From contig NZ_KZ984550.1 in the NCBI RefSeq assembly GCF_003574445.1, forward strand, positions 248,001-312,000: a DNA stretch of 64,000 bases, read 5' to 3'. How positions within the stretch are numbered: the first letter of the stretch is position 1; each line of letters starts with the position of its first letter. The position numbers and the translations under genes are program-made. Positions 15,709-59,501 of the stretch are shown here, piece after piece. The notes below the pieces were generated by a model. That model did not search any database and was not told the origin of the DNA. It saw nothing but the letters and a program-made list of their open reading frames with translations. Origin of the DNA: Streptomyces sp. YIM 130001 (lineage in GTDB: Bacteria; Actinomycetota; Actinomycetes; Streptomycetales; Streptomycetaceae).

Positions 15709-15782
15709 TGCGCCGTCAGGGACTCGAACCCCGGACCCGCTGATTAAGAGTCAGCTGCTCTAACCAACTGAGCTAACGGCGC
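15709..15782 (-). tRNA. tRNA-Lys (CTT), copy 2, inverted
   Basis: Same 74-base sequence as the copies at 1116 and 20666, on the minus strand, with anticodon CTT and no encoded CCA. The bases just upstream (GGTCAGCAG before the acceptor stem) are also shared with copy 3, so the whole leader-tRNA unit is duplicated. A TACTAT -10 lies at 15797-15802 on the minus strand, 14 bases before the 5' end. Confidence 0.98.
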
Positions 15783-20665: not shown

Positions 20666-20739
20666 GCGCCGTTAGCTCAGTTGGTTAGAGCAGCTGACTC
20701 TTAATCAGCGGGTCCGGGGTTCGAGTCCCTGACGGCGCA
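20666..20739 (+). tRNA. tRNA-Lys (CTT), copy 3
   Basis: Identical in all 74 bases to the copies at 1116 and 15709. Identity with copy 1 continues 8 bases upstream and 6 bases downstream. Anticodon CTT, discriminator A, no encoded CCA. A related terminator hairpin follows. Confidence 0.98.
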
Positions 20740-20749
20740 CAGACGGATG

Positions 20750-46238: not shown

Positions 46239-47396
46239 ATGCGCCCCGACACGCCTGCTACGCCTGCCGACCGCACGGGCGGGACGGACCCCGCGGCCGA
46301 CCAGCCCTCCGACCGCACCGCCGCGACCAGCTCGGCCGCGAACCGCGGATCGAACGCCGCACAGCCCGCAGCTGCCGACCCCGAGTCGGTCCCCGGACCG
46401 GACCCCGAGCAGACCTCCGAGCACATCGCGGAGGCCGAGCGCCTCCTGCGTACGGCCACTCAGTACCCGCAGGACGCGGAACAGCTGCACCTGCACGCCG
46501 CCGCCCACCTCGAACTCGCCGGCGAGCGCGAACGCGCCACCACCCTCTACGACAACCTGCTCGGCCAGACCCCGGCGAACTCCCTCCTGATCCGCGCCCT
46601 GAAGGCCGCGAACCTCTGGGAGTACGGACACGAGGCCGAGGCCCGCGCGATCATCGACGGCGTCCGTGGCAGCACACCCCGCGACCCCGCACCCTGGGTG
46701 ATCATCGCCGAGTCCCTGGAGTCGCACGACGAGCTGGAACCGGCCCACGAGACGTTCACCGAGGCCACCACCCGCCTGATCACGCCGGGCGCCCCGGTCC
46801 CGCAGGACGCCCGCCCGCTGCTCGTCGGCCGGCACCGCGTACGCCGACTGCTCGGCCTCGACCACGACAACCAGGACACGCTGGCGGACGACCTGCACAC
46901 CTCCCCGGTCACCCTGGACGAACTCCACGACCCGAACCGCACCTGGTCACTCGGCTCCGAGAACCCCGCCGAACTCCGCGCCGAAATCGCCCGCCTGCAG
47001 GCCGAGTTGGGCTCGTACCGCGCCGCCCTGTCCCGCCCGTTCCCGGTCGCGGTCCTGCACTGGCCGGCCACGGAACTCGCCGAACTCCTCGCGGCGTACC
47101 CCGACCTCGAGTCCGAGTACCCCTCCCACGAGGAGCACCTCGCGACCACAGAGTCGGCCCTCCGCGAACTCGCCGCCTCCGGCACCCCGAACCTCGGCAT
47201 CGTCACCGCCACGGTCCCCTCCTACGAGGCCTTCGCCGCCTCCGAGGCCACCACCCCCTCCGACCCCTCCCTCCTCCCCCAATACACCACCACCCTCGCC
47301 TCCCGAGGCCGAGCCAACCCCTGGCCCCCGCGGAACGAGTGCTGGTGCGGGTCGGGGGCCGGGTATGGGGAGTGCCACGGCCAGCCCCAGGCCTGA
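46239..47396 (+). CDS. SEC-C metal-binding protein with helical repeats
   Basis: A 385-residue cytoplasmic protein. After a disordered N-terminal region (1-60), residues 60-170 form TPR-like helices (Ala-Glu-Arg-Leu-Leu-Arg and Ala-Thr-Thr-Leu-Tyr-Asp-Asn-Leu-Leu). The C-terminus is a SEC-C zinc motif, Cys-Trp-Cys-Gly-Ser-Gly, then Tyr-Gly-Glu-Cys-His. SEC-C is known from SecA and many stand-alone proteins; this one is a common Streptomyces gene of unknown function. The ATG at 46239 is chosen; the frame back to 44745 is antisense to the sortase and not real. It is the last ordinary gene before the defence island, 52 bases from Vsr1. Confidence 0.85.
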   Translation: MRPDTPATPADRTGGTDPAADQPSDRTAATSSAANRGSNAAQPAAADPESVPGPDPEQTSEHIAEAERLLRTATQYPQDAEQLHLHAAAHLELAGERERATTLYDNLLGQTPANSLLIRALKAANLWEYGHEAEARAIIDGVRGSTPRDPAPWVIIAESLESHDELEPAHETFTEATTRLITPGAPVPQDARPLLVGRHRVRRLLGLDHDNQDTLADDLHTSPVTLDELHDPNRTWSLGSENPAELRAEIARLQAELGSYRAALSRPFPVAVLHWPATELAELLAAYPDLESEYPSHEEHLATTESALRELAASGTPNLGIVTATVPSYEAFAASEATTPSDPSLLPQYTTTLASRGRANPWPPRNECWCGSGAGYGECHGQPQA

Positions 47397-47448: not shown

Positions 47449-47883
47449 GTGTCCGAATTCGTGCCGAGCTCACCCGCCGCGTCGTCCCGCATGAGCGGAC
47501 AGAGCTCGCGCGACACCGCACCGGAAATCGCCGTCCGCCGCCTCCTTCACGCGGCGGGCCTCCGCTACCGCGTCAACGTGCCGGTACCCGGCATGCCCCG
47601 CCGGACGATCGACATCGTCCTCGGCCCCGCCCGCATCGCGGTTTTCCTCGACGGATGCTTCTGGCACTGCTGTCCTGACCACACGACCCGGCCGAAGTCG
47701 AACGCCGAGTGGTGGCGAACCAAGCTCGACCAGAACACGGCCCGCGACCGCGAGACCACGCGGCACCTCGAAGCGGCCGACTGGACCGTGCTCCGCTTCT
47801 GGGAGCACGAGAGCCCCGACGAAGTGGCGGCGGCCATCGTCGAGGCCCGCGCAGTGAACATCCGGCGCCGCCGCCGGCCGTAG
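47449..47883 (+). CDS. Very short patch repair-type endonuclease, Vsr1
   Basis: A 144-residue Vsr-family nuclease. Key features: Thr-Ile-Asp-Ile-Val-Leu (catalytic Asp), Phe-Leu-Asp-Gly-Cys-Phe-Trp-His-Cys-Cys-Pro-Asp-His (metal/zinc site and catalytic His), and the C-terminal Val-Leu-Arg-Phe-Trp-Glu-His-Glu. Vsr enzymes nick beside T:G mismatches made when 5-methylcytosine deaminates and travel with cytosine methyltransferases. The GTG at 47449 lacks a ribosome site. Compared with Vsr2 it lacks the long Asn-Met-Gln-Ala-Ile-Arg-Ser-Arg-Asp form of the N-terminal motif (here Gly-Gln-Ser-Ser-Arg-Asp). It is the first gene of the plus-strand arm. Confidence 0.9.
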   Translation: MSEFVPSSPAASSRMSGQSSRDTAPEIAVRRLLHAAGLRYRVNVPVPGMPRRTIDIVLGPARIAVFLDGCFWHCCPDHTTRPKSNAEWWRTKLDQNTARDRETTRHLEAADWTVLRFWEHESPDEVAAAIVEARAVNIRRRRRP

Positions 47884-47978
47884 CCCCCTGCCCGCGTCCG
47901 CGTTCTGGTCCGGTTGTCTGCCCCTCACGCTATTGTCACCATTAATCACATCAACACATTTCGACACTGAGGCAGGGC

Positions 47979-49511
47979 ATGACTGTCGAGTGGCATTTCG
48001 ACGTTCCCACCGCAGGGAGCAGGCACCTCCCACCGGACGCGCGGTACATGGAAGCGCTCAGCAGCCAGGGGTACGGCTTCGAGGTGGCGATGGCCGATCT
48101 CGTCGACAACTCCATCGACGCCGGGGCGAAGGACGTGGTCATCCACTTCTTGCGCGACGGCGACCAGCTCGTGAGCCTGCTGGTGATCGATGACGGCAAG
48201 GGAATGAGCGACGAGGATCTCGACGTCGCCATGACCGTCGGCGGCAAGCGGGACTACGCCCCAGGCGCGCTCGGCATGTTCGGCACCGGTCTGAAGTCGG
48301 CGTCCCTCAGTCATGCCTCGGCCGTCACCGTGATCAGCACCACCAAGCGAACCCGCACCGCAGGACGACGCTGGCTGATGGAACGTGCGGTCGCTGGCTT
48401 CCAGTGCGACATCGTTGACCCCGCCTATGCCCAGGCACTTATCGACCGCTACGCCCAGCGCCCGATCATCTGGCAGGGCACGGTCGTGCGCTGGGACGGC
48501 GTGAAGGACTTCCCCAAGCACGGCGGAGGGGGCCAGACGGACCGGTATCTGCATCGGACGATCAACAAGCTGGGCCTGCACCTCGGCCTCTACTTGCACC
48601 GTTTCCTCGCCCGGGACGACTTCAACATCACCATCGCCGTGGAGGACGTCCGTACCGGCACCGAGTACATGAACTTCGGCGTCCAGCCTCTCGACCCCTT
48701 CGGCTACCCCGTGAGCGGGCACCCGGACTATCCCCGCCGGTTCACCGCCGCCGTACCGTCCATCGGTGACGTGGCACTCCACGCTCACATCTGGACGCCG
48801 AAGTCCAACCTCGACGAGTACAAGGCCGTCGGCTCGGTCGTCGACCGCCAGGGCTTCTACTTCTACCGCCACGACCGCCTCGTGCAGGCGGGCGGCTGGA
48901 ACAACTTCCGCCAGCCTGAGCAGCATCTGTCTCTGGCGCGCGTGGCTGTCGATCTACCGTCGGCCCTCGGCGATGTCTTCCGGCTGACGGTGAAGAAGGC
49001 CGGCGTCGAGGCGTCTCCCGAGTTCACGGCCGCACTGGAGAAGGCCATCGACCCGGAGTCCCGCTCCTTCCTGCACTTCCTGACGGACAGCGACGGCGTG
49101 TACCGCGATGCGCGCAAACGTTCGGGTACGACCCGCAAGCCGGTGATCCCGCCAGGTAAGGGCATCGACCCCGCCGTACGCGAGACCGTCCTCGACGAGC
49201 TGCCGGCGATCCCGTACGAAGACGCCGTCTCGGTCCGCTGGCAGAAACTCGACAACGAGCTCTTCTTCGACATCGACCGAACAGAGCGCACGATCGTCCT
49301 CAATCAGCACTACCGGGCCGCCATCCTGGGCGGCCGGCGCGGTGGCCTGAACGACGCACCGCTGATCAAGTCTCTGATGTACGTCCTCCTGCACCAAGTG
49401 TTCGAAAAGGAGTACAGCGGCAGCCGCGAGAAGGACAATCTGCAGCTGTGGCAGGCGATCCTGGTCTCGGCGGCCCGCGCGGAACTGGACCGGGTGGCGG
49501 ACGGTGACTGA
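47979..49511 (+). CDS. MORC/MutL-type GHKL ATPase of a Z1 defence module
   Basis: A 510-residue ATP-binding protein. The GHKL (Hsp90/gyrase/MutL) site is complete: N-box Asp-Leu-Val-Asp-Asn-Ser (40-45), G1 Asp-Asp-Gly-Lys-Gly-Met (71-76) and G2 Phe-Gly-Thr-Gly-Leu-Lys-Ser (101-107). An S5-like domain then a C-terminal region of about 200 residues follow. The family was described by Iyer, Abhiman and Aravind as the bacterial relatives of eukaryotic MORC, linked to restriction-modification genes. It probably forms an ATP-gated DNA clamp that recruits the nuclease. It is preceded by an AT-rich promoter-like stretch (about 47925-47965). Its last 8 bases overlap the PD-(D/E)XK gene. Confidence 0.88.
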   Translation: MTVEWHFDVPTAGSRHLPPDARYMEALSSQGYGFEVAMADLVDNSIDAGAKDVVIHFLRDGDQLVSLLVIDDGKGMSDEDLDVAMTVGGKRDYAPGALGMFGTGLKSASLSHASAVTVISTTKRTRTAGRRWLMERAVAGFQCDIVDPAYAQALIDRYAQRPIIWQGTVVRWDGVKDFPKHGGGGQTDRYLHRTINKLGLHLGLYLHRFLARDDFNITIAVEDVRTGTEYMNFGVQPLDPFGYPVSGHPDYPRRFTAAVPSIGDVALHAHIWTPKSNLDEYKAVGSVVDRQGFYFYRHDRLVQAGGWNNFRQPEQHLSLARVAVDLPSALGDVFRLTVKKAGVEASPEFTAALEKAIDPESRSFLHFLTDSDGVYRDARKRSGTTRKPVIPPGKGIDPAVRETVLDELPAIPYEDAVSVRWQKLDNELFFDIDRTERTIVLNQHYRAAILGGRRGGLNDAPLIKSLMYVLLHQVFEKEYSGSREKDNLQLWQAILVSAARAELDRVADGD

Positions 49512-50475
49512 AGGACGTGGCGTCTCCTGGACGGACGTCGAGCACTATCTGAGCAAGGGCCAGGCAACCGACTTCCCGCTGTCCGACGCCTCCGCCTCGC
49601 CGCGGGTCTCCTACGTTGTGCGACACGGCGGCAGCGACATCGCACTGCACGTCGACCTCGGGCCACGGGACCGGCTGCCGCAATCACCGTTGTCCACCGT
49701 CCGCGTCGAGCAGATCGCCGACGGCAGGCGGAGGATGGCAAGAATCTGCACCACCCGGCCCGAATTGCTCCGTGACTTCCACGACTTCGTCTCCGCGATC
49801 GCGGACCGGATCGTGGGACACGGTCGCACCCTCGACCGCGCCTTCGCCGAGACTGTTCGGGCATGGAGTGCGCTCCTTGACCGTCCGCGTGCGCTTGCTG
49901 CGGAGAAACGTATCGGCCTGCTCGGCGAGCTCACCGCGCTCAACGCACTCGCCGCCCACGACGGTTGGTACGCAGCGGTCGATTCATGGACCGGTCCGAC
50001 CGGCGAGGAGCACGACTTCGGCCTTCCCGGGTTCGACCTAGAGGTGAAAACCACCGCCTCCGAGCGGCGTCGGCACAGCGTCCACGGCCTTCACCAACTG
50101 GATCCCACTCCCGGACGCCCCCTGTGGCTGGCGTCTTTGCAGCTAACCCGTGGGGGCACCGGCGGACGCACACTCGCCGAGAGCGCCCAGGCCGTTCGGA
50201 CAGCGGTACGGGAGCACGCCCCGGCCGCCCTCGACCGCCTCGACCACACACTGGCCACCGCCGGCTGGTCCGAGGATCTGCCCGACGACGAGCGATGGAC
50301 ACTCCGCACCGCGCCGCTGCTCCTCACGTCCTCCGCCCTACCCCGCCTGAACTTCTCGGCCCTGTCCGGTGAAGCACACGAGCGCATCTCTGCCGTCCAG
50401 TACGTCATGGACCTCACCGGCATCGAGCCGTCCCCCGACTCCCCGGCCGAACCGGCCGAGTTCCGTATTCCATGA
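49504..50475 (+). CDS. PD-(D/E)XK-motif nuclease (DUF4420 family)
   Basis: A 323-residue predicted restriction nuclease. The fold signature is Glu142 (Leu-Leu-Gly-Glu-Leu), Asp171 (Glu-His-Asp-Phe-Gly) and Glu180-Val-Lys182 (Asp-Leu-Glu-Val-Lys-Thr-Thr), the acid-acid-lysine core of PD-(D/E)XK enzymes. Such DUF4420 proteins are coded between the MORC-like ATPase and the Z1 protein in related clusters. The GTG start overlaps the ATPase gene by 8 bases, so synthesis is coupled. It is the probable DNA-cleaving subunit. Confidence 0.86.
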   Translation: MTEGRGVSWTDVEHYLSKGQATDFPLSDASASPRVSYVVRHGGSDIALHVDLGPRDRLPQSPLSTVRVEQIADGRRRMARICTTRPELLRDFHDFVSAIADRIVGHGRTLDRAFAETVRAWSALLDRPRALAAEKRIGLLGELTALNALAAHDGWYAAVDSWTGPTGEEHDFGLPGFDLEVKTTASERRRHSVHGLHQLDPTPGRPLWLASLQLTRGGTGGRTLAESAQAVRTAVREHAPAALDRLDHTLATAGWSEDLPDDERWTLRTAPLLLTSSALPRLNFSALSGEAHERISAVQYVMDLTGIEPSPDSPAEPAEFRIP

Positions 50476-50494
50476 GCCCGAGGAAGAACCATCG

Positions 50495-53455
50495 ATGACC
50501 ACGAACGCGGCCACCGTCCGTCTCACGCTCCACCAGTCCGCCCTCGCCGGAATGCAGACCAGCCGTCCGAAGAACCTGCTGCGCGCCCTCGCATTCCACG
50601 CCGAGGGGGAGGGAGCGGCGGCCGAAGCCTGTGCCACCGGCGCTGACTTCCAGGACACCCTCTATCTCTCCCACTCCACCGACCAACTGGTTGAACTGTG
50701 GCGCAAGCAGCTGACCCAGTGGGACTACGCGGAAGGGCCTGCCTGGTCCTCGTCGGAGCCGCACACCGCTGACCGTCGGGCAGACGTACTCGACCTGCTC
50801 GGCCTGCCCGACGAGACTCGCAAGCTCCTCAACACTCTGATCCCGGTGGCGAAGGCTTCCGAGCCCGTCGTGATCAGCGCGCGGCACCCGAACCCGGACT
50901 GGTACACGCCCCAGTCCCTTCGGGGACGCAGCTGGTACTGGCCCGCCTACCGACGTCTGCTGTCCGAAAAGGGATGGTCCGAGACCGCTGTCGCCGGTCT
51001 GGACACGGCTTCCGACCGGGTCGTCGAACGCCTAGCGGACCCGACCTCCGCGTCCGCGTACCAGTCGAAGGGCCTCGTCGTTGGCTATGTGCAGTCCGGC
51101 AAGACCGCCAATTTCACCGGCGTGATCGCCAAGGCCGTGGACGCCGGCTATCGCCTTGTCATCGTCCTCGGCGGCACTCTCAATCTGCTGCGCGCACAGA
51201 CGCAGCGCCGACTCGACATGGAGCTGGTCGGCCGCGAGAACATCCTGCGCGGCGCCGCCGAGTACGAGTCCGACTACGCCGACGACCCTGCGTGGTCCCG
51301 CGGCAAGTTCCTGTCCCACGGCGGCCAGCCCTCCGCGCTCGGCGGCTTCGACATCCACCGCATGACCACCCGGGACGACGACTACAAGAGCCTGCTGCAG
51401 GGCATCGTCGCCCTCGAGTTCGAGAAGCAGGAGCCCGCCCTCCCGCTGCACGACGCACGCAACCTCCACCGCTCGGCGGCCCGCCTGATGGTCGTGAAGA
51501 AGAACAAGAGCGTCCTTGCGAAACTGGTCAAGGACCTCAACAAGATCAAGACGGCCCTCGGCGAGATCCCTGTCTTGATCATCGACGACGAGTCCGACGA
51601 GGCCTCGGTCAACACCGCCAACCCGAACAAGCCGGACGTAGAGCGCACCGCGATCAACGACAAGATCTCGGAGCTGCTGCAGATGCTGCCGCGAGCCCAG
51701 TATGTCGGCTACACGGCGACGCCGTTCGCGAACGTCTTCGTCGACCCGAGCGACTCCGAGGACATCTTCCCGAAGGACTTCATCGTCTCGCTCCCCCGCC
51801 CGTCCGGATACATGGGCGTCCAGGACTTCCACGATCTCGACACCACGGTCGAGCCGGCGGAACGAACTGTCGCCAACTCCAACGAGAAGGCACACGTCCG
51901 CAACATCCTGCTGTCCGACCCCGTGGACGACAGCTGTCTGCAGCAGGCCATGGACATGTTCGTTCTCACTGCCGCGATGAAGCTGTACCGGGAGTCAAAC
52001 GGGCTGGGCGACCGCCACTTCCAGCACCACACCATGCTGATCCATGAGTCGGTGCGCACGGCAGAGCACCGCGAACTGCTGGGCCGTGTAACGCGGTTGT
52101 GGTGGAACTCCGGCTATACCGGCGCCTCGGGCCACGCCCGGCTGCGTAGCCTCTTCGAAACCGACGTTGCCCCGGTATCCCGGGTACGTGCGGACGGACA
52201 CGCGATGCCGGCGTCGTACGACGAACTGGCGCCCTACATCGGCGCAGCGGCCATTCGGATCGGCGGCGACGATCAGCCGATCATCGTCGTCAACGGCGAC
52301 AAGGACATCGAGACCGGCGAGGCCGACTTCGACAAGCGTTCCATCTGGAAGATCCTCATCGGCGGCCAGAAGCTGGCGCGCGGCTTCACGATCGAGGGTC
52401 TCACTGTCACCTATTACCGTCGCCGCACCAACAACGCGTCGACTCTGATGCAGATGGGCCGATGGTTCGGCTTCCGCAACGGCTACCGCGACCTGGTGCG
52501 CCTCTACCTCGGCCGCGAGGAGACGATGGGCGCCAAGGAGATCGACCTCTACGAGGCCTTCGAGGCGATCTGCCGCGACGAGGAGACCTTCCGCGAGCAG
52601 CTCCGCCAGTACTCCGAACCCGTCGACGGCCATCCCCAGGTGACCCCGGCCCAGGTCCCGCCGCTGGTATCACAGCACCTGTCGTGGCTCAGGCCTACGA
52701 GCGCGAACAAGATGTTCAACTCCGAGCTGATTGAGATCCGTTCACCGGGCAAGCCGATCGAGCCTGCGGCCTACCCGGTCAATCCGGCCGCCATTAAACG
52801 CAACACTGAGCGGTGGCGGCCTCTCCTGGACTCCCTCTCGCCCGAACCGCGGATTTTCGCCAGCGAAGCGCCGGAAGCCGATAGTTCGAGGATCGAGGCG
52901 TTGACCGGCCTGGTGAGCCACAGCGACCTGGTCCGCGTCCTTTCGCAGCTCGAGTGGGAGCGCCCGGGCCACTTCGCGCCCCACCTCACGTATCTGTCGC
53001 AATTGGACGGCACGCTTGCCAAGGTCGACGACTGGCTGTTCGTCGCGCCACAGTTGACCTCCGGCCAGCCAGTCACGGCTACGGTGCTTGGCTCAGCCCC
53101 GCTCTCTCTGGTCCGACGTGCCCGCCAGCCTGGCAAGGTCTCCTTCGGCCGCATCGCGGGTATGGAGCACCGGAACACTGCTGAGCTGCTGGTCTCTGGC
53201 AGCGCGTCGGCTGCATCGAGGCTCGGTTCACCTCGGCGTGGCATCGCGCTCTTCTACCCGGTGGTGGAGGCGGGCGACACTGCGGCCGTCCGCGCTGCAG
53301 TCAGCAATGGCGTGGCCGATCCATCGCGAGTCATCATGGCGTTCACCCTGCTCCCGCCGGCCGCCGCCACCGGCTCATCCCGCCAGCTCGTGCGCTTCCG
53401 CACCAAGGACTCCGCCCGCCTTGACGCACCAATCGTCACCACGGATAGCCTGTGA
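50495..53455 (+). CDS. Z1-domain SF2 helicase-like ATPase
   Basis: A 986-residue protein with superfamily-2 motor features: Walker A Gly-Tyr-Val-Gln-Ser-Gly-Lys-Thr (197-204), an acidic motif II Asp-Asp-Glu-Ser-Asp-Glu (364-369), motif III-like Tyr-Thr-Ala-Thr-Pro-Phe (406-411), the Z1-specific Leu-Ala-Arg-Gly-Phe-Thr-Ile-Glu-Gly-Leu, and motif VI-like Gln-Met-Gly-Arg-Trp-Phe-Gly-Phe-Arg. The Z1 domain defines the endonuclease/ATPase of the MORC-linked restriction family. It probably translocates on or senses DNA and licenses the DUF4420 nuclease. It starts 19 bases after that gene, with AGGA about 10 bases before the ATG. Vsr2 begins 4 bases after its stop, so the five genes look like one operon. 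Confidence 0.9.
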   Translation: MTTNAATVRLTLHQSALAGMQTSRPKNLLRALAFHAEGEGAAAEACATGADFQDTLYLSHSTDQLVELWRKQLTQWDYAEGPAWSSSEPHTADRRADVLDLLGLPDETRKLLNTLIPVAKASEPVVISARHPNPDWYTPQSLRGRSWYWPAYRRLLSEKGWSETAVAGLDTASDRVVERLADPTSASAYQSKGLVVGYVQSGKTANFTGVIAKAVDAGYRLVIVLGGTLNLLRAQTQRRLDMELVGRENILRGAAEYESDYADDPAWSRGKFLSHGGQPSALGGFDIHRMTTRDDDYKSLLQGIVALEFEKQEPALPLHDARNLHRSAARLMVVKKNKSVLAKLVKDLNKIKTALGEIPVLIIDDESDEASVNTANPNKPDVERTAINDKISELLQMLPRAQYVGYTATPFANVFVDPSDSEDIFPKDFIVSLPRPSGYMGVQDFHDLDTTVEPAERTVANSNEKAHVRNILLSDPVDDSCLQQAMDMFVLTAAMKLYRESNGLGDRHFQHHTMLIHESVRTAEHRELLGRVTRLWWNSGYTGASGHARLRSLFETDVAPVSRVRADGHAMPASYDELAPYIGAAAIRIGGDDQPIIVVNGDKDIETGEADFDKRSIWKILIGGQKLARGFTIEGLTVTYYRRRTNNASTLMQMGRWFGFRNGYRDLVRLYLGREETMGAKEIDLYEAFEAICRDEETFREQLRQYSEPVDGHPQVTPAQVPPLVSQHLSWLRPTSANKMFNSELIEIRSPGKPIEPAAYPVNPAAIKRNTERWRPLLDSLSPEPRIFASEAPEADSSRIEALTGLVSHSDLVRVLSQLEWERPGHFAPHLTYLSQLDGTLAKVDDWLFVAPQLTSGQPVTATVLGSAPLSLVRRARQPGKVSFGRIAGMEHRNTAELLVSGSASAASRLGSPRRGIALFYPVVEAGDTAAVRAAVSNGVADPSRVIMAFTLLPPAAATGSSRQLVRFRTKDSARLDAPIVTTDSL

Positions 53456-53458
53456 TCC

Positions 53459-53920
53459 GTGCCTGATGAACTCGAGCCGACGGTCCCGGAAGGATCCTGG
53501 GCATCGTCGGCTGCACGTCGCCGGAACATGCAAGCGATCCGGAGCCGCGATACTAAGCCCGAGCAGATGATCCGGCAGCTCGTGCATGCGCAGGGTTTCC
53601 GCTATCGCGTCAGCGCGAGACCACTTCCCAGCCTGCGCCGAACGGCCGATCTCGTATTTCGTCCGGCAAAGGTCGCCGTCTTCATCGATGGCTGCTACTG
53701 GCACGGGTGTCCGGACCATTACGTTCCACCAAAAACCAACCCTGGCTACTGGTCCGACAAGGTACTTCGCAACATGACACGCGACACCGACACCAACACA
53801 CAGCTCAGTAAGGCTGGTTGGCTGGTACTACGGTTCTGGGAACACGAAGAGGCTTCACTGTGCGCCGACAAGATCGCTGCTGTTGTCGTCGCTCGACGTC
53901 GGGAGACCGGAAAGCGCTGA
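53459..53920 (+). CDS. Very short patch repair endonuclease, Vsr2 (canonical)
   Basis: A 153-residue, full-length Vsr. The N-terminal Arg-Asn-Met-Gln-Ala-Ile-Arg-Ser-Arg-Asp-Thr-Lys-Pro-Glu, the catalytic Thr-Ala-Asp-Leu-Val-Phe, Ile-Asp-Gly-Cys-Tyr-Trp-His-Gly-Cys-Pro-Asp-His and Val-Leu-Arg-Phe-Trp-Glu-His-Glu are all present. It should incise T:G mismatches at the adjacent methyltransferase's sites. The GTG is 4 bases after the Z1 stop. Its last 66 bases overlap the 3' end of the convergent methyltransferase gene, which couples the two arms physically. Confidence 0.93.
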   Translation: MPDELEPTVPEGSWASSAARRRNMQAIRSRDTKPEQMIRQLVHAQGFRYRVSARPLPSLRRTADLVFRPAKVAVFIDGCYWHGCPDHYVPPKTNPGYWSDKVLRNMTRDTDTNTQLSKAGWLVLRFWEHEEASLCADKIAAVVVARRRETGKR

Positions 53921-55192
53921 GCCGCCGATCGACAGCTGCCCGGACTCGCCTTCAGGCTCCCCGCCGTCCATGACGTAACCCGCCAGCAGCGCGTCCCGCA
54001 ATTCCGGGCGCAGGACCGCGGCGATAGCTCTTCCTACGGCCTCGGCGACCGGCGGGGGGAAGGCATTTCCCACCTGCCGGTACCGGGCAGTCTTCTTGCC
54101 CTGAAATTCCCATCCCCGCGGAAATCCCTGGATGAGGGCCGCTTGTTCAACCGTCAGCATGGGGCCCGCCTTGCGGAACAGATCCCGGTCAGGAACCGTG
54201 CCGGGACCAGAGTCGTTGGCCACACCCGTCGCGTCGACTCCCATAGCCTCCCATGCGCGCTTTGCCCTGGTAGGACCCAGGTCAGCACCACCGTGCTTCC
54301 GGGACCCTCCGACCAAGGTGGGCCCCACTCCGCCCGTAGCGTTCTGCTCCGCTTCAGTTGCCTGGCGATGCCAGTCGCGAAAGACATCATTGCCCGTACG
54401 ATCACCGGGCCTTGCGTCGCGGCCATCCTCATTCCGGTCCCAGAATTGGTGGCACCGCTCCCGCATCGTCTCTTCCAGGGTGGCGGCAACAGAAACCGGG
54501 CCGCCTGCCACGCCCTTGGGCCAGACGAACTCCTGACCCTTCAAAGCGTCCCGATGAATCGCCACCAGAATCGCTCTCGGCCGCAACTGCGGGACGGCGA
54601 AATTGCTGGCATCGAGACGGCGCCAGACGCTCCTCATAACCTGGTCCTGGACCTCAATTGGCCATGTTTTATCGACTTTTGGGACCACATACCCCAAGCG
54701 GCGGAGCTCACTGACCACTGATCTACGATACTCAATGAAGACGTGTGGCGGCTCCAGAATGCCGCGCACATTTTCGATCATTACCGCTTTCGGCAGCAGG
54801 GCCTCGATAATCTTGAGGGCTTCTGGGAACAAGTCGCGTTCGTCGTCCGGGCCTAGCTGCTTTCCTGCCAATGAGAAGGGCGGGCAGGGAACGCCGCCGG
54901 CAAACAAATCCAGCTCGCCCTTACCGACTCCCAAGCCACGCCGAATTTTCGAATCGAGGAAATCCTTCACATCCAGCGGCTCGAGCGCTGCAGCCCGCTT
55001 CTTCCCCCATCCCGGCCAGGTGCCGACATTCGCCCGTAGCGTACTTACAGCGTGTGTGTCATATTCGACCAGCGCGAGGTGCTTGAAGCCTGCGTTGTGC
55101 AGACCAACGGCCTGGCCTCCCGCACCCGCGCAGATCTCGATCGAGGTCAACGGCGGGGTTGTCTGCGGAACCTCGCGGCCGCTGGCGCTCAT
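53855..55192 (-). CDS. DNA (cytosine-5) methyltransferase
   Basis: A 445-residue m5C methyltransferase. Motif I is Ile-Glu-Ile-Cys-Ala-Gly-Ala-Gly-Gly, motif IV Val-Pro-Cys-Pro-Pro-Phe-Ser (nucleophile Cys103), motif VI Glu-Asn-Val (140-142), motif VIII Gln-Leu-Arg-Pro-Arg, and motifs IX-X Gln-Val-Gly-Asn-Ala-Phe-Pro. A long target-recognition region lies between VIII and IX. AGGAGG precedes the ATG at 55192. It ends the minus-strand arm but lies behind a perfect 22-bp hairpin, so it may have its own promoter. It should protect host DNA from the adjacent nucleases; the recognition sequence is not readable. Base composition is visibly lower in G+C than the core genes. Confidence 0.95.
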   Translation of the reverse strand: MSASGREVPQTTPPLTSIEICAGAGGQAVGLHNAGFKHLALVEYDTHAVSTLRANVGTWPGWGKKRAAALEPLDVKDFLDSKIRRGLGVGKGELDLFAGGVPCPPFSLAGKQLGPDDERDLFPEALKIIEALLPKAVMIENVRGILEPPHVFIEYRRSVVSELRRLGYVVPKVDKTWPIEVQDQVMRSVWRRLDASNFAVPQLRPRAILVAIHRDALKGQEFVWPKGVAGGPVSVAATLEETMRERCHQFWDRNEDGRDARPGDRTGNDVFRDWHRQATEAEQNATGGVGPTLVGGSRKHGGADLGPTRAKRAWEAMGVDATGVANDSGPGTVPDRDLFRKAGPMLTVEQAALIQGFPRGWEFQGKKTARYRQVGNAFPPPVAEAVGRAIAAVLRPELRDALLAGYVMDGGEPEGESGQLSIGGSALSGLPTSSDDNSSDLVGAQ

Positions 55193-55240
55193 GGACTCGC
55201 TCCTCCTGATGTGACGCAAAACCGACCCCCAGTGTCGCAG

Positions 55241-55290
55241 AGCGGCTGTGAGACTGCTGCCCATCTCCGGGCAGCAGTCTCACAGCCGCT
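55241..55290 (-). terminator. Perfect 22-bp hairpin between helicase and methyltransferase genes
   Basis: Arms at 55241-55262 and 55269-55290 are perfect reverse complements around a 6-base loop (ATCTCC). On the minus strand the hairpin follows the SNF2 stop by 23 bases and ends 48 bases before the methyltransferase ATG. No T tract follows. It may terminate the three-gene message, act as an attenuator, or bind a controller. Confidence 0.8.
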
Positions 55291-55313
55291 TCGCCCCACC
55301 ACACAGTCGGGGG

Positions 55314-57149
55314 TCACACAGCGCCCTGGAGGTCCTCCCTGTTCACATGCTGGAGCAGGGCCTGAACGTCACTAGGGGCCAGTCCGGCGGCAACCGAGGG
55401 CTCTTCCTCCAGGTAGGCCAGCTGCTGCACGGTCGGGTCGTCGAGAATCCTGCCCATGAAGTCCAGCTTCAACTGGAGCCGTGCCGCCACCACTTCGTCG
55501 ACAGTTCCCGAAGCGGCCAAGACCGTCACACGGGTCTCCATATCCGAGGCCAGTCCCAGCCGGTGGATCCGGTCCAGGCTCTGCAGGAACCGTCCTGCGA
55601 CGAAGTCCCTTTCGACGTACACGGCATCGTGGCACGTGCGATGAAGGCTGATCCCTTCCCCCAGCGTGGCCGGGTTGGAGATCAGCACCATGCAGTCCTT
55701 GTCCGCGCGAAACCGCCGCAACTCCTCCTCGCGGTCCGGTGTCCCTCCGTGAACTACGGCAGGTTCATATTCACTGAGCAACTTAGCCAGCGTCGTCAGA
55801 CTGCGTACGAAAGTTGTCCAGATGAGGGTCTTCCGTCCCCGCCTGGCGTTCTCTGCGACGATCGCCGCAGCCTCCTTGTATTTGGGCGACATTTCGTAGT
55901 CGGGCAAGCTCTGCAGGAGCGAATAGAGCGAACTGCCTGCAGGGATCTGCAGAGGCGGAAGCTGATAGGCGAGCGGCTCGTGACGGCTGGCACCGGCCAG
56001 CACAAGAGCCGGGCTCGTCGCCGCCATGAGCAGACGCAGCGCCGTCTTCCCGAGCGAACTCAGGTCATCGCGTTCCGTACCGGAACTCCCGTTGACCATG
56101 GAGTTGTAGATATCGCGATGAAGGTCCGGCAGGTCCACATACCTCATGGACAGATCCATGGGCGGCAGCCCCAACTCATTCTTGGTTGTCCGCGTGAACA
56201 GCGGACGCAGCACGCTACTGGCATGGGCAAGGTCCCCGCCAGCCACGGCGCGAGTGACGGATCGCTGGCCGTGCCCTGGCCAGACAAACCCAAGGAGACT
56301 CTCCAGGTCGCGTGATCCGTTGGGCGCCGGTGTACCGGTGAGGATCAGCCGCCTCCGCGCCAGAGGCCCGAGCGCCATGCAAGCAGCCCCGTACGTCCCC
56401 CGCACCCCAAGTTTCATTCGGTGCGCTTCATCCAGGATGATCATTGAGGGAGCGGCCTTGAGCCAGCTGGCCAGACTGGGCAGCGCTCTGTCGAGACGCT
56501 CGTAGTTCACGATCAGCATCTCGGTCCATCCATTGCGCGAACGCTCCATGATCTGCGTTCGCAGCGGATCCTGGAACGACAGCGCAGCTTCGGACTCCCA
56601 AGCCTCATAGGCTGACTTGGGACACACGACCAGGACGCGGCTGACCTTCTCCTGTTCTTTCTGGGCGGCGTAGACAGCTAGCGCCACGCGAGTCTTTCCC
56701 GCGCCGGGCACGCTGAAGTTCGCACCGTGCTGAAGGGACAACAGCTTGGCGATGTCGCGGCGCTGGAACTCACTGAGTGCCCCCACCCAGTTGTCACCTA
56801 GCAGGGCTTCGACGTCGTGATCCGCTACCGCAGCAGTCGCGTCAGTACCGTTTGCCAGGCGCGACTCGACAGCTTTCGCGTCCTGGAGAACGCCAACGAC
56901 CAGTTCCCGCAGCTCCTGATCCCAGACAACTCCTGCGCGGTCCGGCCAGCTGTTGACTGACGCAACGTCGCCAAGCAGGTCATCAAGATCTAGCTGGGCT
57001 TCAAGTAGCCCTAACTGTCCTCCACTTGGGAAGCGAGCAGTCAAGCGCACCAAGTCTTGTCTGTACTTCTCGGTTGTCCGGAGTACGACCTTGGTGCGAG
57101 AGGAATCAAGCGCAAGGCGCAGGGAAGCTTCCACCGCCGATGCCGTCAC
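55314..57149 (-). CDS. SNF2/DEAH-type helicase of the minus-strand defence arm
   Basis: A 611-residue SF2 translocase. Motif I is Pro-Gly-Ala-Gly-Lys-Thr (148-153 region), Ia Val-Val-Cys-Pro-Lys, II Leu-Asp-Glu-Ala-His (DEAH 240-243), III Leu-Thr-Gly-Thr-Pro-Ala-Pro-Asn, V Leu-Gly-Glu-Gly-Ile-Ser-Leu and VI Gln-Ser-Leu-Asp-Arg-Ile-His-Arg-Leu-Gly, the SNF2 style. No nuclease domain is attached. The GTG at 57149 overlaps the ParB-like stop (GTGA) and has GGAG 8 bases upstream; it is preferred over the ATG at 57185. It probably moves on DNA for the HNH/ParB-fold partners encoded upstream. Confidence 0.9.
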   Translation of the reverse strand: MTASAVEASLRLALDSSRTKVVLRTTEKYRQDLVRLTARFPSGGQLGLLEAQLDLDDLLGDVASVNSWPDRAGVVWDQELRELVVGVLQDAKAVESRLANGTDATAAVADHDVEALLGDNWVGALSEFQRRDIAKLLSLQHGANFSVPGAGKTRVALAVYAAQKEQEKVSRVLVVCPKSAYEAWESEAALSFQDPLRTQIMERSRNGWTEMLIVNYERLDRALPSLASWLKAAPSMIILDEAHRMKLGVRGTYGAACMALGPLARRRLILTGTPAPNGSRDLESLLGFVWPGHGQRSVTRAVAGGDLAHASSVLRPLFTRTTKNELGLPPMDLSMRYVDLPDLHRDIYNSMVNGSSGTERDDLSSLGKTALRLLMAATSPALVLAGASRHEPLAYQLPPLQIPAGSSLYSLLQSLPDYEMSPKYKEAAAIVAENARRGRKTLIWTTFVRSLTTLAKLLSEYEPAVVHGGTPDREEELRRFRADKDCMVLISNPATLGEGISLHRTCHDAVYVERDFVAGRFLQSLDRIHRLGLASDMETRVTVLAASGTVDEVVAARLQLKLDFMGRILDDPTVQQLAYLEEEPSVAAGLAPSDVQALLQHVNREDLQGAV

Positions 57150-58585
57150 CGGTGGAGCTCCAGCTTGGCAGCACCCAGAAGCCATGCCAAGCCGTCACCA
57201 GGATGACTAGCTCCACGCCCAGCCTGCTGTGCCAACTTGCTGATACTGGACCGAAGTTTAAGAAGTGCCTCGTCGAAAGCCTCCTCATCCAAGGACTGCG
57301 ATGCCCGGGCCTGGACGAAATCCGCGACGCACTGATCGATATCCACACAGGCGTCTGCGAGGCGCGCCGGCGCCAGCTGCTTGCGCTTACGCACGCGCGC
57401 ATCCCTCCCCGCCGCGTCGATAGCCCGGTCAAAAGCCTCCTTCGCCTCCTCGACGACCTCTTGGGCGCTGCTCATCTCAGCGTCGCCCAGCCCCGGCTTA
57501 CCGCCCCTTGCTGCGGCTTTGGCCCGCACGATCCGGTCAGTGAGCGAGCGCGCCGCGGCGACCGCGGCCGCAGTTTCCGGCACCGGCATGTCCAGCCCAG
57601 CGATCGTCTCGGCGGGTTGCGGCTCAGGCTCGGTCCCCGCCTGCGTCAGGTTCGGCGGAAGATTCCGGTCGAGGTAACCGCTGTGCAGGAACGTCTCATC
57701 GATGTGCCGGACATCGGTCTTCGAGAAGCCGAGGAGGATAGCGGCAAGCCTCGCCTCCTTGAGCGCTTCCGCCTGGTCCGGGTCTACGCTCTTCAACTTC
57801 TCGTAGCGACGGTGCAGCTCCTTGAGCTTCTCTTGATCATCCTCGAAATCCACCAGCCGAAGAGCCGCCACTCCCCCGCGGCTCGAACTACGTTTGATCA
57901 ACTCGCGAACTACGCCGAGGATCCACCGTTCCTGGTGGTACGTGGCCTCACGGATACGGAAGTCACGGGCGATGTCGCCAGGAATCCGCCCCACCGACGC
58001 CTGCTCTTCCATCGCCAGCAACCGGTTGATGTACGAGTAGTCCCGCCGGTGATCGTTCCGCAGCTGAAGCGAAAGCTCCACCGCGTTGATGTCAGCCCAG
58101 CTAAACGATGCTGGGAGAACTCCCACACGCATGGACGTCCGACCGAGATCGCGCAGTCCGGCTGCCCGCGTGTTGCCGTTTACCAGCACGCCATGGTGCG
58201 TGACGAGTCCGGGGTCGCTCTGCCCGAACTCCGAGAGGCTGACCTTGAGAGCGTCGAACCTGCTATCGCGCTCCGCCGGGTTCGACGGCGAAGCCATCAG
58301 CAGCTGCTCCAGGTACCTCTGGCTGTCCGTGCTCCAAGGAGCTTCGTCCAACGCCGCATCCTTGCCGGCGTCGTGGCTGCGCTGGGCTCGGATGCGATGC
58401 GTCCCAGGGTTGTAGTAGAGATCAGTGAGCGGCACGTCAATCACCTCGACGTGGAGGGTCCTATCGTTCCAGTCAACGGTGACCGTCTCCCGGGTGCCGC
58501 CGGACTCCTTGGCCTCGGCGAGCTTCTTCTTGACCGTCCGGCTGATCTCCTCCGCACGCGGCGGGGGTTCGAATGAAAGCATCAT
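57146..58585 (-). CDS. ParB/Srx-fold domain protein of the defence arm
   Basis: A 479-residue protein. An N-terminal ParB/sulfiredoxin-like domain spans about 35-150: Val-Ile-Asp-Val-Pro-Leu-Thr-Asp-Leu, Asn-Pro-Gly-Thr-His-Arg, and the hallmark Val-Asn-Gly-Asn-Thr-Arg (135-140). An insertion of about 40 residues splits the fold. The C-terminal half is helical and charged, with likely coiled coil (Val-Val-Glu-Glu-Ala-Lys-Glu-Ala-Phe). ParB-like domains bind nucleotides, hydrolyse CTP or act as nucleases; several occur in defence systems. There is no ParA gene, so chromosome or plasmid partition is unlikely. It is translationally coupled to the helicase and lies 17 bases after the HNH-like gene. 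Confidence 0.83.
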   Translation of the reverse strand: MMLSFEPPPRAEEISRTVKKKLAEAKESGGTRETVTVDWNDRTLHVEVIDVPLTDLYYNPGTHRIRAQRSHDAGKDAALDEAPWSTDSQRYLEQLLMASPSNPAERDSRFDALKVSLSEFGQSDPGLVTHHGVLVNGNTRAAGLRDLGRTSMRVGVLPASFSWADINAVELSLQLRNDHRRDYSYINRLLAMEEQASVGRIPGDIARDFRIREATYHQERWILGVVRELIKRSSSRGGVAALRLVDFEDDQEKLKELHRRYEKLKSVDPDQAEALKEARLAAILLGFSKTDVRHIDETFLHSGYLDRNLPPNLTQAGTEPEPQPAETIAGLDMPVPETAAAVAAARSLTDRIVRAKAAARGGKPGLGDAEMSSAQEVVEEAKEAFDRAIDAAGRDARVRKRKQLAPARLADACVDIDQCVADFVQARASQSLDEEAFDEALLKLRSSISKLAQQAGRGASHPGDGLAWLLGAAKLELHR

Positions 58586-58602
58586 GGTCTGCCCTATCCC
58601 TT

Positions 58603-59286
58603 CTAGTTGCCCAGTCCGCGCGTTGCGTCCCTCACAGCATCACGCGACGACTCCGGAAACGACCGATAGGTGGCCCACAGCTTCTCGAGCTCGCCGAGCT
58701 CCCGCTGACCGGCATCCATCCAACCCAGGAACACGTCCTGCTCCAACGGACCCAACCCCTGCACCCTGCCGATGAACTCTGCCAGGTCGACCTCCCGGTG
58801 CGCGCCACCGGTCCTGCAGCGATTGCACTCAGTGACCAGCTCGGTCTGCTCGATGCCGTCCAGGTTGCGCACGTTCCGGCGGGCGATGTCCAGCTGAGCA
58901 TCGGGGCCACCGTCACCGTAGGACTCGCCGGCGCTGATACCGCAGGACCGGCACAGGAATCCGTCAGCCTGCATGACCTTGATCCGCTGCGCAGCCGTCA
59001 AGCTTGTCTTTGCCTTACGGAGCGTCTTCTGGCCCGGAATCCAGACCTCGGCACCACGCTTGACGTACCGCTGCTCGTCCTGCCTCAGTGAGGGGTCATC
59101 GCGGCTCGTGTGAATCTCCCAGCCGTGGTCACGGAGTTCCCGGATCCGGCGATCGATCTGCGCCTCCGGGAACGCTGCACGGACCTGCGCCTTGGTGAAC
59201 ACCCTGCCTTCTCCCACCACCGACACCAACCACAGGGCGGCGCGCGCCTTGGATCCCAACCTCGTGTCCTGCCACGACGGTTCCAT
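58603..59286 (-). CDS. Winged-helix plus HNH-like zinc protein
   Basis: A 227-residue protein. Residues 10-60 resemble a winged helix (Val-Phe-Thr-Lys-Ala-Gln-Val-Arg-Ala-Ala-Phe, then Arg-Ile-Arg-Glu-Leu-Arg-Asp-His-Gly-Trp). Two zinc knuckles, Cys112-x-x-Cys115 and Cys154-x-x-Cys157, frame an HNH-like core. Where HNH nucleases have Asp-His, this has Asp133-Ile, so the general-base histidine appears missing. It may be a variant nuclease or a DNA-binding specificity subunit. GGAGG precedes the ATG at 59286. It is the first gene of the minus-strand arm, divergent from the regulator at 59502. Confidence 0.78.
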   Translation of the reverse strand: MEPSWQDTRLGSKARAALWLVSVVGEGRVFTKAQVRAAFPEAQIDRRIRELRDHGWEIHTSRDDPSLRQDEQRYVKRGAEVWIPGQKTLRKAKTSLTAAQRIKVMQADGFLCRSCGISAGESYGDGGPDAQLDIARRNVRNLDGIEQTELVTECNRCRTGGAHREVDLAEFIGRVQGLGPLEQDVFLGWMDAGQRELGELEKLWATYRSFPESSRDAVRDATRGLGN

Positions 59287-59501
59287 CGGTACCTCCGGGT
59301 CTCGTCTTGCGTCATGCCCGTCCACCCGCAGGCCCGGAGGTTTTCACTCAGAGGCTCGGGCGGGTCGGAACTGCTGACAACTAGCGTTCTCCGGTACCGA
59401 ACAAGAATCCAGTGGAATCATGTCTTGCGCGCAGGTTGGCAAGACGGGGCTCCGGCGGTCCGCTGCGGTACCGCTGGCGGCATACAGAAGCGGGCGGTCA
59501 G

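What the first reader, a model, noticed from the sequence alone, without database searches (positions are those of the whole stretch)
47449..59286. Composite defence island: MORC/Z1/DUF4420/Vsr arm facing an HNH-like/ParB-fold/SNF2/m5C-methyltransferase arm
Nine genes in two convergent operons contain two different ATP motors (GHKL plus Z1, and SNF2), two candidate nucleases, two Vsr enzymes and only one methyltransferase. The MORC-Z1-Vsr association was described by Iyer, Abhiman and Aravind, but I do not know of a characterised system that adds the HNH-like/ParB-fold/SNF2 trio. Gene overlaps inside each arm (8 bases ATPase/nuclease, 4-base gap Z1/Vsr2, GTGA ParB/SNF2) argue for stoichiometric complexes. 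Base composition drops here (33 G+C in the 60 bases from 54661, against about 70 percent in core genes), which suggests transfer. Hypothesis: one methylation mark licenses two restriction arms, or the minus arm is a second-line response.
Basis: partly seen in the sequence, partly recalled or inferred. Interest (0 to 1): 0.88.

Follow-up and report, generated by a model that had tools for sequence, protein, structure and literature searches.

The report
One methyl mark, two restriction arms
A soil bacterium carries a DNA-defence locus in which one DNA-marking enzyme and its repair partner appear to serve two quite different DNA-attacking machines, and relatives suggest that one machine is re-aimed at new marks by exchanging a single protein domain.

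Summary
All nine genes are present as described, but the grouping was wrong. In 392 Streptomyces genomes the fixed unit is a C5-methyltransferase (DCM) with Vsr2. Arms plug into it: HNH-like/ParB/SNF2 at 63 of 98 Vsr2-clade places, NaeI at 46, MORC-Z1 at 24, in most combinations; 14 places, this one included, carry both ATP-driven arms. All 75 DCMs recovered there share one recognition signature whatever the arm; NaeI and NgoMIV neighbours suggest GCCGGC. This genome has one C5-methyltransferase, and relatives of its MORC arm usually carry other DCMs. The new clue: the Z1 body groups with MORC systems using other DCMs, but its last ~230 residues group with Z1 proteins beside this DCM type (AU p 3e-58 and 5e-6); seven pairs of relatives show the same break. 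I infer an exchangeable target-recognition domain and one mark licensing both arms. HNH-like has probably lost catalysis; ParB-like has a ParB/KorB fold. Against: genome-wide co-occurrence is not significant (15 against 10.1), one prediction failed, and nothing was tested at the bench.

The parts
46404..47396 (+). SEC-C gene, conserved left flank: hot-spot marker, not part of the system
   Evidence: Pfam SEC-C; 69-71% identical in the five best matches to the c8 flank gene found beside ParB-only, MORC-only and composite loci
47449..47883 (+). Vsr1, Vsr-family nuclease of the MORC arm
   Evidence: Pfam Vsr 8.9e-16, TIGR00632 105.5 bits over cut-off; upstream of MORC also in L164 and L183
47979..49511 (+). 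MORC/MzaB-like GHKL ATPase
   Evidence: Pfam HATPase_c_3 1.7e-21; PADLOC MzaB 1.2e-32
49504..50475 (+). DUF4420 / MzaD-like PD-(D/E)XK nuclease; overlaps MORC by 8 bases
   Evidence: Pfam 1.6e-43; NCBIfam MzaD 4.4e-21
50495..53455 (+). Z1 / MzaC-like SF2 helicase-ATPase (ORF opens at 50369)
   Evidence: Pfam Z1 1.6e-51; NCBIfam MzaC 4e-78
52739..53452 (+). C-terminal domain of Z1 (residues ~791-1028 of the ORF): inferred exchangeable target-recognition domain
   Evidence: groups by DCM class and not by body; no Pfam hit
53459..53920 (+). Vsr2, Vsr-family nuclease of the DCM-Vsr core
   Evidence: Pfam 2e-20, TIGR00632 130.8 bits; Vsr2 clade in 97 of 392 genomes; opposed to DCM within 1.2 kb in 66 of 75 loci with both read
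53855..55264 (-). DCM, C5-cytosine methyltransferase of the core, predicted to mark GCCGGC
   Evidence: Pfam 9.3e-49; the only PF00145 match in the genome
54273..54298 (-). DCM target-recognition signature KHGGADLGP
   Evidence: DNA pattern hit G000:C3:302273-302298; in 75 of 75 recovered Vsr2-linked DCMs and 79 of 80 named ParB loci
55314..57149 (-). SNF2 helicase/translocase (upstream ATG at 57185)
   Evidence: Pfam SNF2-rel_dom 3.7e-18, PHROG helicase 2.3e-62; GTGA overlap with ParB
57146..58585 (-). ParB/KorB-fold protein, inferred NTP-gated DNA clamp
   Evidence: AlphaFold2 mean pLDDT 86.4; Foldseek: 13 hits with E<=1e-3, all KorB, ParB or Noc, best 3.3e-5; TM-scores modest (target-normalised at most 0.53 among them)
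58603..59325 (-). HNH-like protein with Cys4 motif, catalytic His replaced (probable non-catalytic DNA-binding subunit)
   Evidence: C125, C128, C167, C170 invariant in 61 sequences; His column R 51, H 4, K 3, L 2, Q 1; no significant PDB fold match
59412..60323 (+). divergent regulator-like gene (HTHup) recurring beside HNH-like
   Evidence: its cluster is in 48 of the 68 ParB loci clustered, window included; no Pfam hit; function inferred

Best explanation
The locus is a restriction-modification hub with two stacked, ATP-driven restriction arms. The hub is DCM plus Vsr2: DCM marks self DNA, probably at GCCGGC, and Vsr2 repairs T:G mismatches that arise where the 5-methylcytosine deaminates. 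Arm 1 is Vsr1, MORC, DUF4420 and Z1: the Z1 C-terminal domain recognises the unmarked site, Z1 and MORC use ATP to move along or remodel DNA, and DUF4420 (perhaps with Vsr1) cuts. Arm 2 is HNH-like, ParB-like and SNF2: a degenerate HNH protein and a ParB/KorB-type clamp recognise or load on unmarked DNA, SNF2 translocates, and the cut is made by Vsr2 or an unidentified activity. Both arms spare DNA carrying the one mark. The MORC arm was re-aimed to this mark by acquiring the matching Z1 C-terminal domain, and it lacks the DCM genes that most of its relatives carry. Shown by comparison here: the hub, the interchangeable arms, the single MTase, the shared DCM signature, the domain exchange, the ParB fold, the loss of the HNH histidine. 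Inferred: GCCGGC, the recognition role of the Z1 C-terminus, licensing of arm 2 by the same mark, and every biochemical step.
For: Hub: of 68 ParB-positive genomes among 392, 63 have the Vsr2 clade, all within 15 kb (16.8 expected, p=1.6e-41); NaeI-positive 65, of which 49 with Vsr2 and 46 linked; window-like Z1 (Pfam score 160-195 bits) 58, of which 27 with Vsr2 and 24 linked. DCM and Vsr2 are opposed within 1.2 kb in 66 of 75 loci. On the DCM tree (75 rows) the Z1 arm needs at least 11 changes, ParB 5, NaeI 4; the window's DCM lies in a clade of 24 that holds 20 ParB-only and 4 ParB+Z1 loci. One mark: one PF00145 match in a genome rated 100% complete; KHGGADLGP in 75 of 75 recovered Vsr2-linked DCMs and 79 of 80 named ParB loci. 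NaeI, and in a few loci NgoMIV, unrelated families, sit beside DCMs of this type. Z1 domain: the common/own DCM label needs 10 changes on the Z1 body tree and 1 on the C-terminal tree (49 labelled rows); body-controlled permutation 0 of 1000, with no such effect for the N-terminal region; AU tests 5.2e-6 and 3.2e-58; seven pairs picked from the tree, such as L185/L141: MORC 94.5%, body 98.3%, C-terminus 45.1%. Own DCMs elsewhere: related MORC loci usually have one or two other DCMs right after Z1. Folds. Precedent: two gonococcal Vsr enzymes are stimulated by MutL, a GHKL ATPase, and one acts at a GCCGGC-derived mismatch (PMC6116569, passages).
Against: Two genomes (G324, G440, near-identical Z1) have a Z1 C-terminus that groups with the window's but no KHGGADLGP signature: my prediction failed there. 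Seven Z1 proteins beside the common DCM (L143, L184, L185, L187, L188, L190, L192) have a second C-terminal type, so C-terminus and signature are not one to one. Two 'own-DCM' loci (L168, L173) also have a DCM with the common signature nearby. The arms are not significantly enriched together genome-wide (p=0.089), and a shared hot spot could bring them together. Nine of 98 Vsr2 places have none of the three arms within 15 kb. ParB-SNF2 pairs without a recognisable DCM or Vsr exist on an S. albidoflavus plasmid (41% identical ParB) and, in the stretch seen, a Kozakia plasmid. GCCGGC rests on known members of the NaeI and NgoMIV families, not on a methylome. Arm 2 has no clearly intact nuclease here. 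Partial Mantel support inside the common class is weak (r=0.22), and there the body also correlates with the DCM region given the C-terminus (r=0.34).
Confidence: 0.6

Rival explanations
1. Hot-spot neighbours: the DCM-Vsr2-HNHl-ParB-SNF2 system and the MORC-Z1 system sit together only because both insert at the same chromosomal site, and they work independently.
For: Many ParB-only, MORC-only and composite loci share the same flanking SEC-C gene and neighbours; no significant genome-wide enrichment of the pair; third-position GC differs between most genes of the two arms.
Against: The window MORC arm lacks the DCM genes of most relatives and the genome has no other C5-MTase; its Z1 C-terminus is of the type found beside this DCM; Z1 proteins outside the 160-195 bit class are linked to ParB in 0 of the 8 genomes that have both.
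Confidence: 0.2
2. The Z1 C-terminal domain is a docking domain for the local Vsr/MTase module rather than a DNA-recognition domain; specificity lies elsewhere (DUF4420, Vsr).
For: The domain changes together with a whole module (Vsr type and DCM type change together in type B loci); [quoted passage not shown]
Against: Across all 43 loci tested and within each class the domain tracks the DCM recognition region after control for body and for the rest of the DCM (r 0.28, own 0.27, common 0.18); no B3 or PLD match among the ten proteins scanned here; the two own-DCM C-terminal types are closest to each other although their Vsr layout differs.
Confidence: 0.25
3. Arm 2 is not a restriction arm but an accessory of the mark: the ParB clamp and SNF2 help DCM or Vsr2 reach their sites, or control expression.
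For: No recognised intact nuclease in the window version; HNH-like has lost the catalytic His; arm 2 is with a DCM and a Vsr in 80 of 80 named loci and is added to a NaeI system at 20 of 98 places.
Against: Relatives carry a NOV_C/DUF3883 gene after SNF2, called a REase domain in PMC3710099 (passages); far relatives occur without DCM and Vsr; SNF2 plus nuclease is a common restriction layout (recalled).
Confidence: 0.25
4. Vsr2 is the shared restriction nuclease: at unmethylated sites it makes breaks, so DCM-Vsr2 is itself an addiction or restriction pair and the arms deliver or stimulate Vsr2.
For: Vsr2 is the constant partner; in Caulobacter a Vsr-like protein causes an SOS response when YGCCGGCR is unmethylated (PMC12907096, abstract and passages); MutL and ATP stimulate gonococcal Vsr (PMC6116569, passages).
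Against: Known Vsr enzymes nick mismatches, not intact sites (recalled; the Caulobacter authors also propose mismatches); four Vsr2-clade places (L227-L230) show no core-type DCM within 9 kb.
Confidence: 0.2

Closest known systems
MORC / Z1-helicase / RE-fold restriction-modification operons with DCM and Vsr (Iyer, Abhiman & Aravind 2008, PMC2292703; parts 1 and 2 of 4 read)
   Same: GHKL MORC, Z1-type SF2 helicase, RE-fold gene, Vsr and a cytosine methylase; the paper also lists a separate MORC-SNF2-HNH type
   Different: Here one MORC arm and a ParB-SNF2 arm share one DCM-Vsr pair; the word ParB occurs 0 times in that paper's text; no Z1 domain exchange in the parts read
Putative Z1-DUF4420-methyltransferase system, types I and II (Miller et al. 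2022, PMC9523054; section 11 read)
   Same: Z1, DUF4420-type nuclease (printed DUF4220) and cytosine MTase as core; type I associated with DNA repair endonucleases
   Different: Here the MTase belongs to another, separable module and serves a second arm as well
MzaABCDE anti-phage system
   Same: MzaB, MzaC and MzaD-like proteins in the locus
   Different: All three far below NCBIfam equivalog cut-offs; no AIPR match among the ten proteins scanned
CglI / NgoAVII (PMC4267653; abstract start and passages seen)
   Different: CglI has a PLD-B3 R protein that reads DNA; no such match among the ten proteins here
NaeI / NgoMIV type II systems (GCCGGC)
   Same: DCM with the same recognition signature, often in the same loci in relatives
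   Different: No NaeI match in this genome; restriction by ATP-driven arms instead (inferred)
GmrSD-type restriction factors, ParB-fold plus HNH (PMC12839542, passages)
   Same: ParB-superfamily fold used in restriction beside an HNH-type domain
   Different: Here the ParB-like protein is nearest to KorB/Noc/ParB clamps, is paired with SNF2, and its HNH-like neighbour is degenerate
Dnd modification with decoupled restriction modules (PMC10853773; abstract start and passages seen)
   Same: one DNA mark combined with varying restriction modules
   Different: phosphorothioate mark and other proteins

Membership tests
MzaABCDE | MzaB, MzaC, MzaD over the family cut-offs | tested here: not met
   116.5 of 850, 263.3 of 1500, 75.4 of 420 bits
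MzaABCDE | AIPR protein (MzaE) present | tested here: not met
   none of the ten proteins scanned matched an AIPR family
MORC-Z1-RE-fold RM operon (Iyer type 3) | MORC + Z1 helicase + RE-fold gene, with DCM and Vsr nearby | tested here: met
MORC-Z1-RE-fold RM operon (Iyer type 3) | DThhQXuRhFG motif in the helicase | tested here: inconclusive
   translation reads STLMQMGRWFG: all but the first position fit, by eye
MORC-Z1-RE-fold RM operon (Iyer type 3) | MORC-specific S5 motif | not tested
   no motif check was run
CglI/NgoAVII | PLD-B3 R protein | tested here: not met
   no PLD or B3 match among the ten proteins
ParB/KorB/Noc clamp superfamily | ParB N-domain plus HTH fold | tested here: met
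   Foldseek: KorB 8qa9 E 3.3e-5, 13 hits E<=1e-3, all ParB/KorB/Noc
ParB/KorB/Noc clamp superfamily | CTP/NTP-dependent clamp closure | not testable with these tools
   GNTR stands where ParB usually has GERR (recalled); N138 and R140 invariant
HNH endonuclease | catalytic His of the HNH motif | tested here: not met
   R in 51 of 61, H in 4 of 61 at the aligned column; window has R
Vsr endonuclease | TIGR00632 over cut-off | tested here: met
   105.5 and 130.8 bits against 97.85
GCCGGC (NaeI-type) methyltransferase | methylates GCCGGC | not testable with these tools
   inferred from NaeI and NgoMIV neighbours of the same DCM type

The most novel reading that the evidence does not exclude
MORC-Z1 restriction machines carry an exchangeable ~230-residue target-recognition domain at the Z1 C-terminus, which lets them desert their own methyltransferases and plug into any DCM-Vsr mark. 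In Streptomyces a probable GCCGGC mark has become a shared self-label read by three or more unrelated effectors. One of these couples a KorB/Noc-type ParB clamp to a SNF2 motor; ParB-fold domains are known in restriction (GmrSD), but my searches did not find this clamp-plus-motor form described.
Probability: 0.45. Interest if true: 0.87.

Novelty: new variant of a known kind. Interest (0 to 1): 0.72.

Why it matters
It offers a concrete, testable answer to how MORC-Z1 (Mza-like) systems pick their targets, by a swappable C-terminal domain. It adds a 5-methylcytosine case to the idea that a DNA mark can be a shared platform for changing effectors. It also gives a predicted site (GCCGGC) with which to test the whole locus, and would help in planning DNA transfer into Streptomyces strains.

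Tried and rejected
HNH nuclease as the cutter of arm 2: rejected because the catalytic histidine is missing in the window and in most relatives. The structure search of HNH-like gave nothing significant; EcoKMcrA appeared only at rank 28, E 1.6. MORC-arm ownership of Vsr2: rejected. A profile relation of the Z1 C-terminus to NaeI, NgoMIV, ParB, SNF2, HNH-like, MORC, DUF4420 or DCM: none. Prediction that G324 and G440 would hold the same DCM signature: failed. Sorting DCM classes by bit score of the recognition segment: not sharp enough, replaced by the motif pattern. No named system for arm 2 as a whole came out of PADLOC, NCBIfam or PHROG.

Literature: searches listed no paper whose title or abstract start describes the ParB-SNF2-DCM-Vsr unit, a Z1 C-terminal recognition domain or the two-arm locus. 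Several listings were capped (for example 20 of 44, 20 of 1,133, 12 of 46, 10 of 23), only open-licence PMC papers are held, and only the papers cited, PMC5379612 (passages), PMC8011034 and PMC12137116 (passages) were opened.

Limits of the counts: the 392 genomes are one draw of the genus; places count as linked if within 15 kb on one contig, so contig ends lose links. 'Window-like Z1' is a score class (160-195 bits) and includes a few odd-length proteins. Of 98 Vsr2 places, 82 could be read in sequence and 75 gave a DCM within 9 kb. The partial Mantel test used 43 of 49 labelled Z1 loci, because six own-DCM loci (L140, L168, L171, L174, L175, L181) gave no DCM with the motif in my gene calls. 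Seven Z1 loci without a nearby DCM were left out of the label counts. Mantel and label-shuffle tests do not fully remove relatedness, and the AU groups and the seven swap pairs were picked after I had seen the clusters or trees. Loci L182-L196 are second views of places already held and were left out of the DCM tree. The structure alignments used 63 rows (ParB) and 52 rows (HNH-like), window included, of 81 possible.

Full report
WHAT IS THERE. The nine genes are present at the stated places: Vsr1, MORC, DUF4420, Z1 and Vsr2 on the plus strand; DCM, SNF2, ParB-like and HNH-like on the minus strand. The genus is taken as Streptomyces because contigs of same-genus handles have the lengths of named Streptomyces contigs (for example 21,816 and 22,855 bases). 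A divergent regulator-like gene at 59412-60323 recurs beside HNH-like: its cluster is in 48 of the 68 ParB loci clustered, window included. The left flank is a SEC-C gene, 69-71% identical to the flank gene of many related loci.

THE REAL UNIT. I searched 392 genomes of the genus with the ParB-like protein (68 positive), the Z1 family (109 positive; 58 with window-like Z1), Vsr2 (97 genomes in its clade, set apart by a gap between 206 and 187 bits) and NaeI (65 positive). Of 98 Vsr2-clade places, within 15 kb: ParB only 32, ParB+NaeI 17, NaeI only 16, ParB+Z1 11, Z1+NaeI 10, all three 3, none 9. All 63 genomes with both ParB and Vsr2 have them linked; five ParB genomes have no Vsr2 of this clade. 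Of 82 Vsr2 places read in sequence, 75 gave a DCM within 9 kb; in 66 of these the two genes are opposed with centres under 1.2 kb apart, as in the window, and in nine they are 5.8-8.2 kb apart.

ACROSS GENERA. A scan of named genomes kept 80 ParB loci, chiefly Streptomyces but also records named Amycolatopsis, Nocardia, Saccharopolyspora, Lentzea, Labedaea, Microbispora and Kitasatospora. All 80 carry HNH-like, ParB, SNF2, a DCM and a Vsr; 13 also carry MORC or Z1. More distant ParB-SNF2 pairs on Rhizobium, Mesorhizobium, Kozakia and Azospirillum plasmids have a DUF3883 gene after SNF2, and three of the four a DCM in the stretch seen. An S. albidoflavus plasmid has ParB-SNF2 (41% identical ParB) with no match to HNH-like, DCM or Vsr in the 25 kb seen, so the tie is strong but not absolute. 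The combination with MORC-Z1 in one locus is a minority: 14 of 68 ParB genomes. At genome level it is not significantly enriched (15 against 10.1 expected, p=0.089), but 14 of the 15 are within 15 kb, against 0 of 8 for other Z1 classes. Genome G351 (locus L183) has the same order, Vsr1-MORC-DUF4420-Z1-Vsr2 facing DCM-(NOV_C)-SNF2-ParB-HNH-like, with a DCM from another branch, which suggests an independent assembly.

ONE MARK. The genome has a single PF00145 match, the window's DCM (completeness given as 100, 59 contigs). All 75 DCMs recovered at Vsr2-clade places carry KHGGADLGP in the recognition region, with any arm, and so do 79 of 80 named ParB loci; the miss, L264, is a 6-kb contig on which the DCM match starts near the end. 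Related MORC-Z1 loci without Vsr2 carry other DCMs with a different region; two of the twelve shown, L168 and L173, have in addition a DCM of the common type. Beside the common DCM type relatives often carry NaeI (PF09126; 46 of 98 Vsr2 places) and in four loci NgoMIV (PF09015; L101, L102, L152, L155). The review PMC4081073 (passages) gives G|CCGGC for NgoMIV and prints GCC|CCG for NaeI, which I take as a misprint of GCCGGC (recalled). Two unrelated endonuclease families beside one DCM type make GCCGGC the best guess.

HOW THE MORC ARM FITS. The window's Z1 body (residues 201-790) is 86% identical to L164, a MORC system with its own DCMs, and 62-68% to Z1 proteins of the other main body type. 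Its C-terminal region is the reverse: 38% to L164 but 59-62% to nine Z1 proteins beside the common DCM; other Z1 proteins beside that DCM range from 37 to 56%. Trees agree: the label 'common DCM or own DCM' changes 10 times on the body tree and once on the C-terminal tree (49 labelled rows of 56). Holding the window with its own-DCM body relatives is rejected for the C-terminus (p 5.2e-6), and holding it with the common-DCM proteins of the other body type is rejected for the body (p 3.2e-58). Seven pairs of relatives, picked from the tree, repeat the pattern: MORC 85-95%, Z1 body 87-98%, C-terminus 35-45%, breaking near residue 800. In the own-DCM class alone the C-terminus follows the DCM recognition region given the body (r=0.38, p=0.001, 19 loci); in the common class weakly (r=0.22, p=0.009, 24 loci). 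I conclude that this domain is exchanged together with the mark and most likely reads the site. Against: seven Z1 proteins beside the common DCM have a second C-terminal type, and G324 and G440 group with the window type without the DCM signature. In CglI the Z1 protein has a C-terminal domain of no stated role and another protein reads DNA (PMC4267653, passages).

HOW THE PARB ARM MAY WORK. The ParB-like model (mean pLDDT 86.4) matches KorB, ParB and Noc clamps (13 hits with E<=1e-3, TM-scores modest). HNH-like keeps four invariant cysteines, but the catalytic histidine is arginine in 51 of 61 sequences; four paralogues beside DCM genes keep it, and a fifth has a histidine one position away. 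Its model is less sure (pTM 0.45) and has no significant match. So arm 2 looks like a recognition or loading complex with a SNF2 motor. In the 24 loci of the window's DCM clade I found no NaeI, NgoMIV, NOV_C, GmrSD or c26-type HNH cluster member; other relatives add NOV_C/DUF3883. ParB-fold plus HNH is known from GmrSD-type factors (PMC12839542, passages), but with another arrangement. Two gonococcal Vsr proteins are stimulated by MutL, a GHKL ATPase, and one acts at a GCCGGC-derived mismatch (PMC6116569, passages); in Caulobacter a Vsr-like protein causes a damage response when YGCCGGCR is unmethylated (PMC12907096, abstract and passages). Both make it plausible that Vsr2 is more than a repair enzyme, but this is inference.

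COMPARISON. The MORC arm falls within operons predicted by Iyer and colleagues (PMC2292703, parts 1 and 2 read) and the putative Z1-DUF4420-MTase system of Miller and colleagues (PMC9523054, section 11), and resembles Mza without meeting its cut-offs. Combining one mark with changing restriction modules has a parallel in Dnd systems (PMC10853773, passages). I found no description of the DCM-Vsr-HNHl-ParB-SNF2 unit, of two arms on one DCM-Vsr pair, or of the Z1 domain exchange in the listings, several of them capped, with only a few papers opened.

VERDICT. Real, and better than described: a new variant of a known kind, with a testable answer to how the MORC-Z1 arm is aimed. Restriction itself, the site and both mechanisms remain untested.

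Noticed in passing
window 1116-1190 (+), 15708-15782 (-), 20666-20740 (+): Three tRNA-Lys genes with the same CTT anticodon in one 64-kb window, possibly marking integrated elements between them.
   Followed up: no
L069 6486-7193, L070 14403-15110, L071 5549-6256, L075 14378-15085: HNH-like paralogues beside DCM that keep the histidine (for example LTLGHVNP), unlike the window copy.
   Followed up: partly
L100, L101, L102 (G581, G482, G389): Loci with MORC, Z1, NaeI, Vsr2, HNH-like, ParB, SNF2 and DCM together, two of them (L101, L102) also with an NgoMIV-cluster gene: up to four candidate restriction modules on one DCM.
   Followed up: partly
L049, L053 / L195: A block of about eight genes sits between SNF2 and DCM in two related loci.
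   Followed up: no
L011, L089, L096, L097, L098: Loci with DCM (and HNH-like) divergent from ParB-SNF2 that carry a GmrSD_N-cluster gene between NOV_C and Vsr2 (Pfam run on L097 only).
   Followed up: no
L227-L230 (G644, G435, G676, G464): Vsr2-clade genes (64-65% identical) with no core-type DCM within 9 kb.
   Followed up: partly
L185 / G363:C1:195230-195673: The Vsr2 gene of this composite locus has one in-frame TGA, so that copy may be decaying.
   Followed up: no
L006 (Rhizobium ruizarguesonis pRL11): Vsr, DCM, an SMC/AAA-type ATPase, a second Vsr, then ParB, SNF2 and DUF3883 in a row: a far relative of the layout with a different ATPase.
   Followed up: partly
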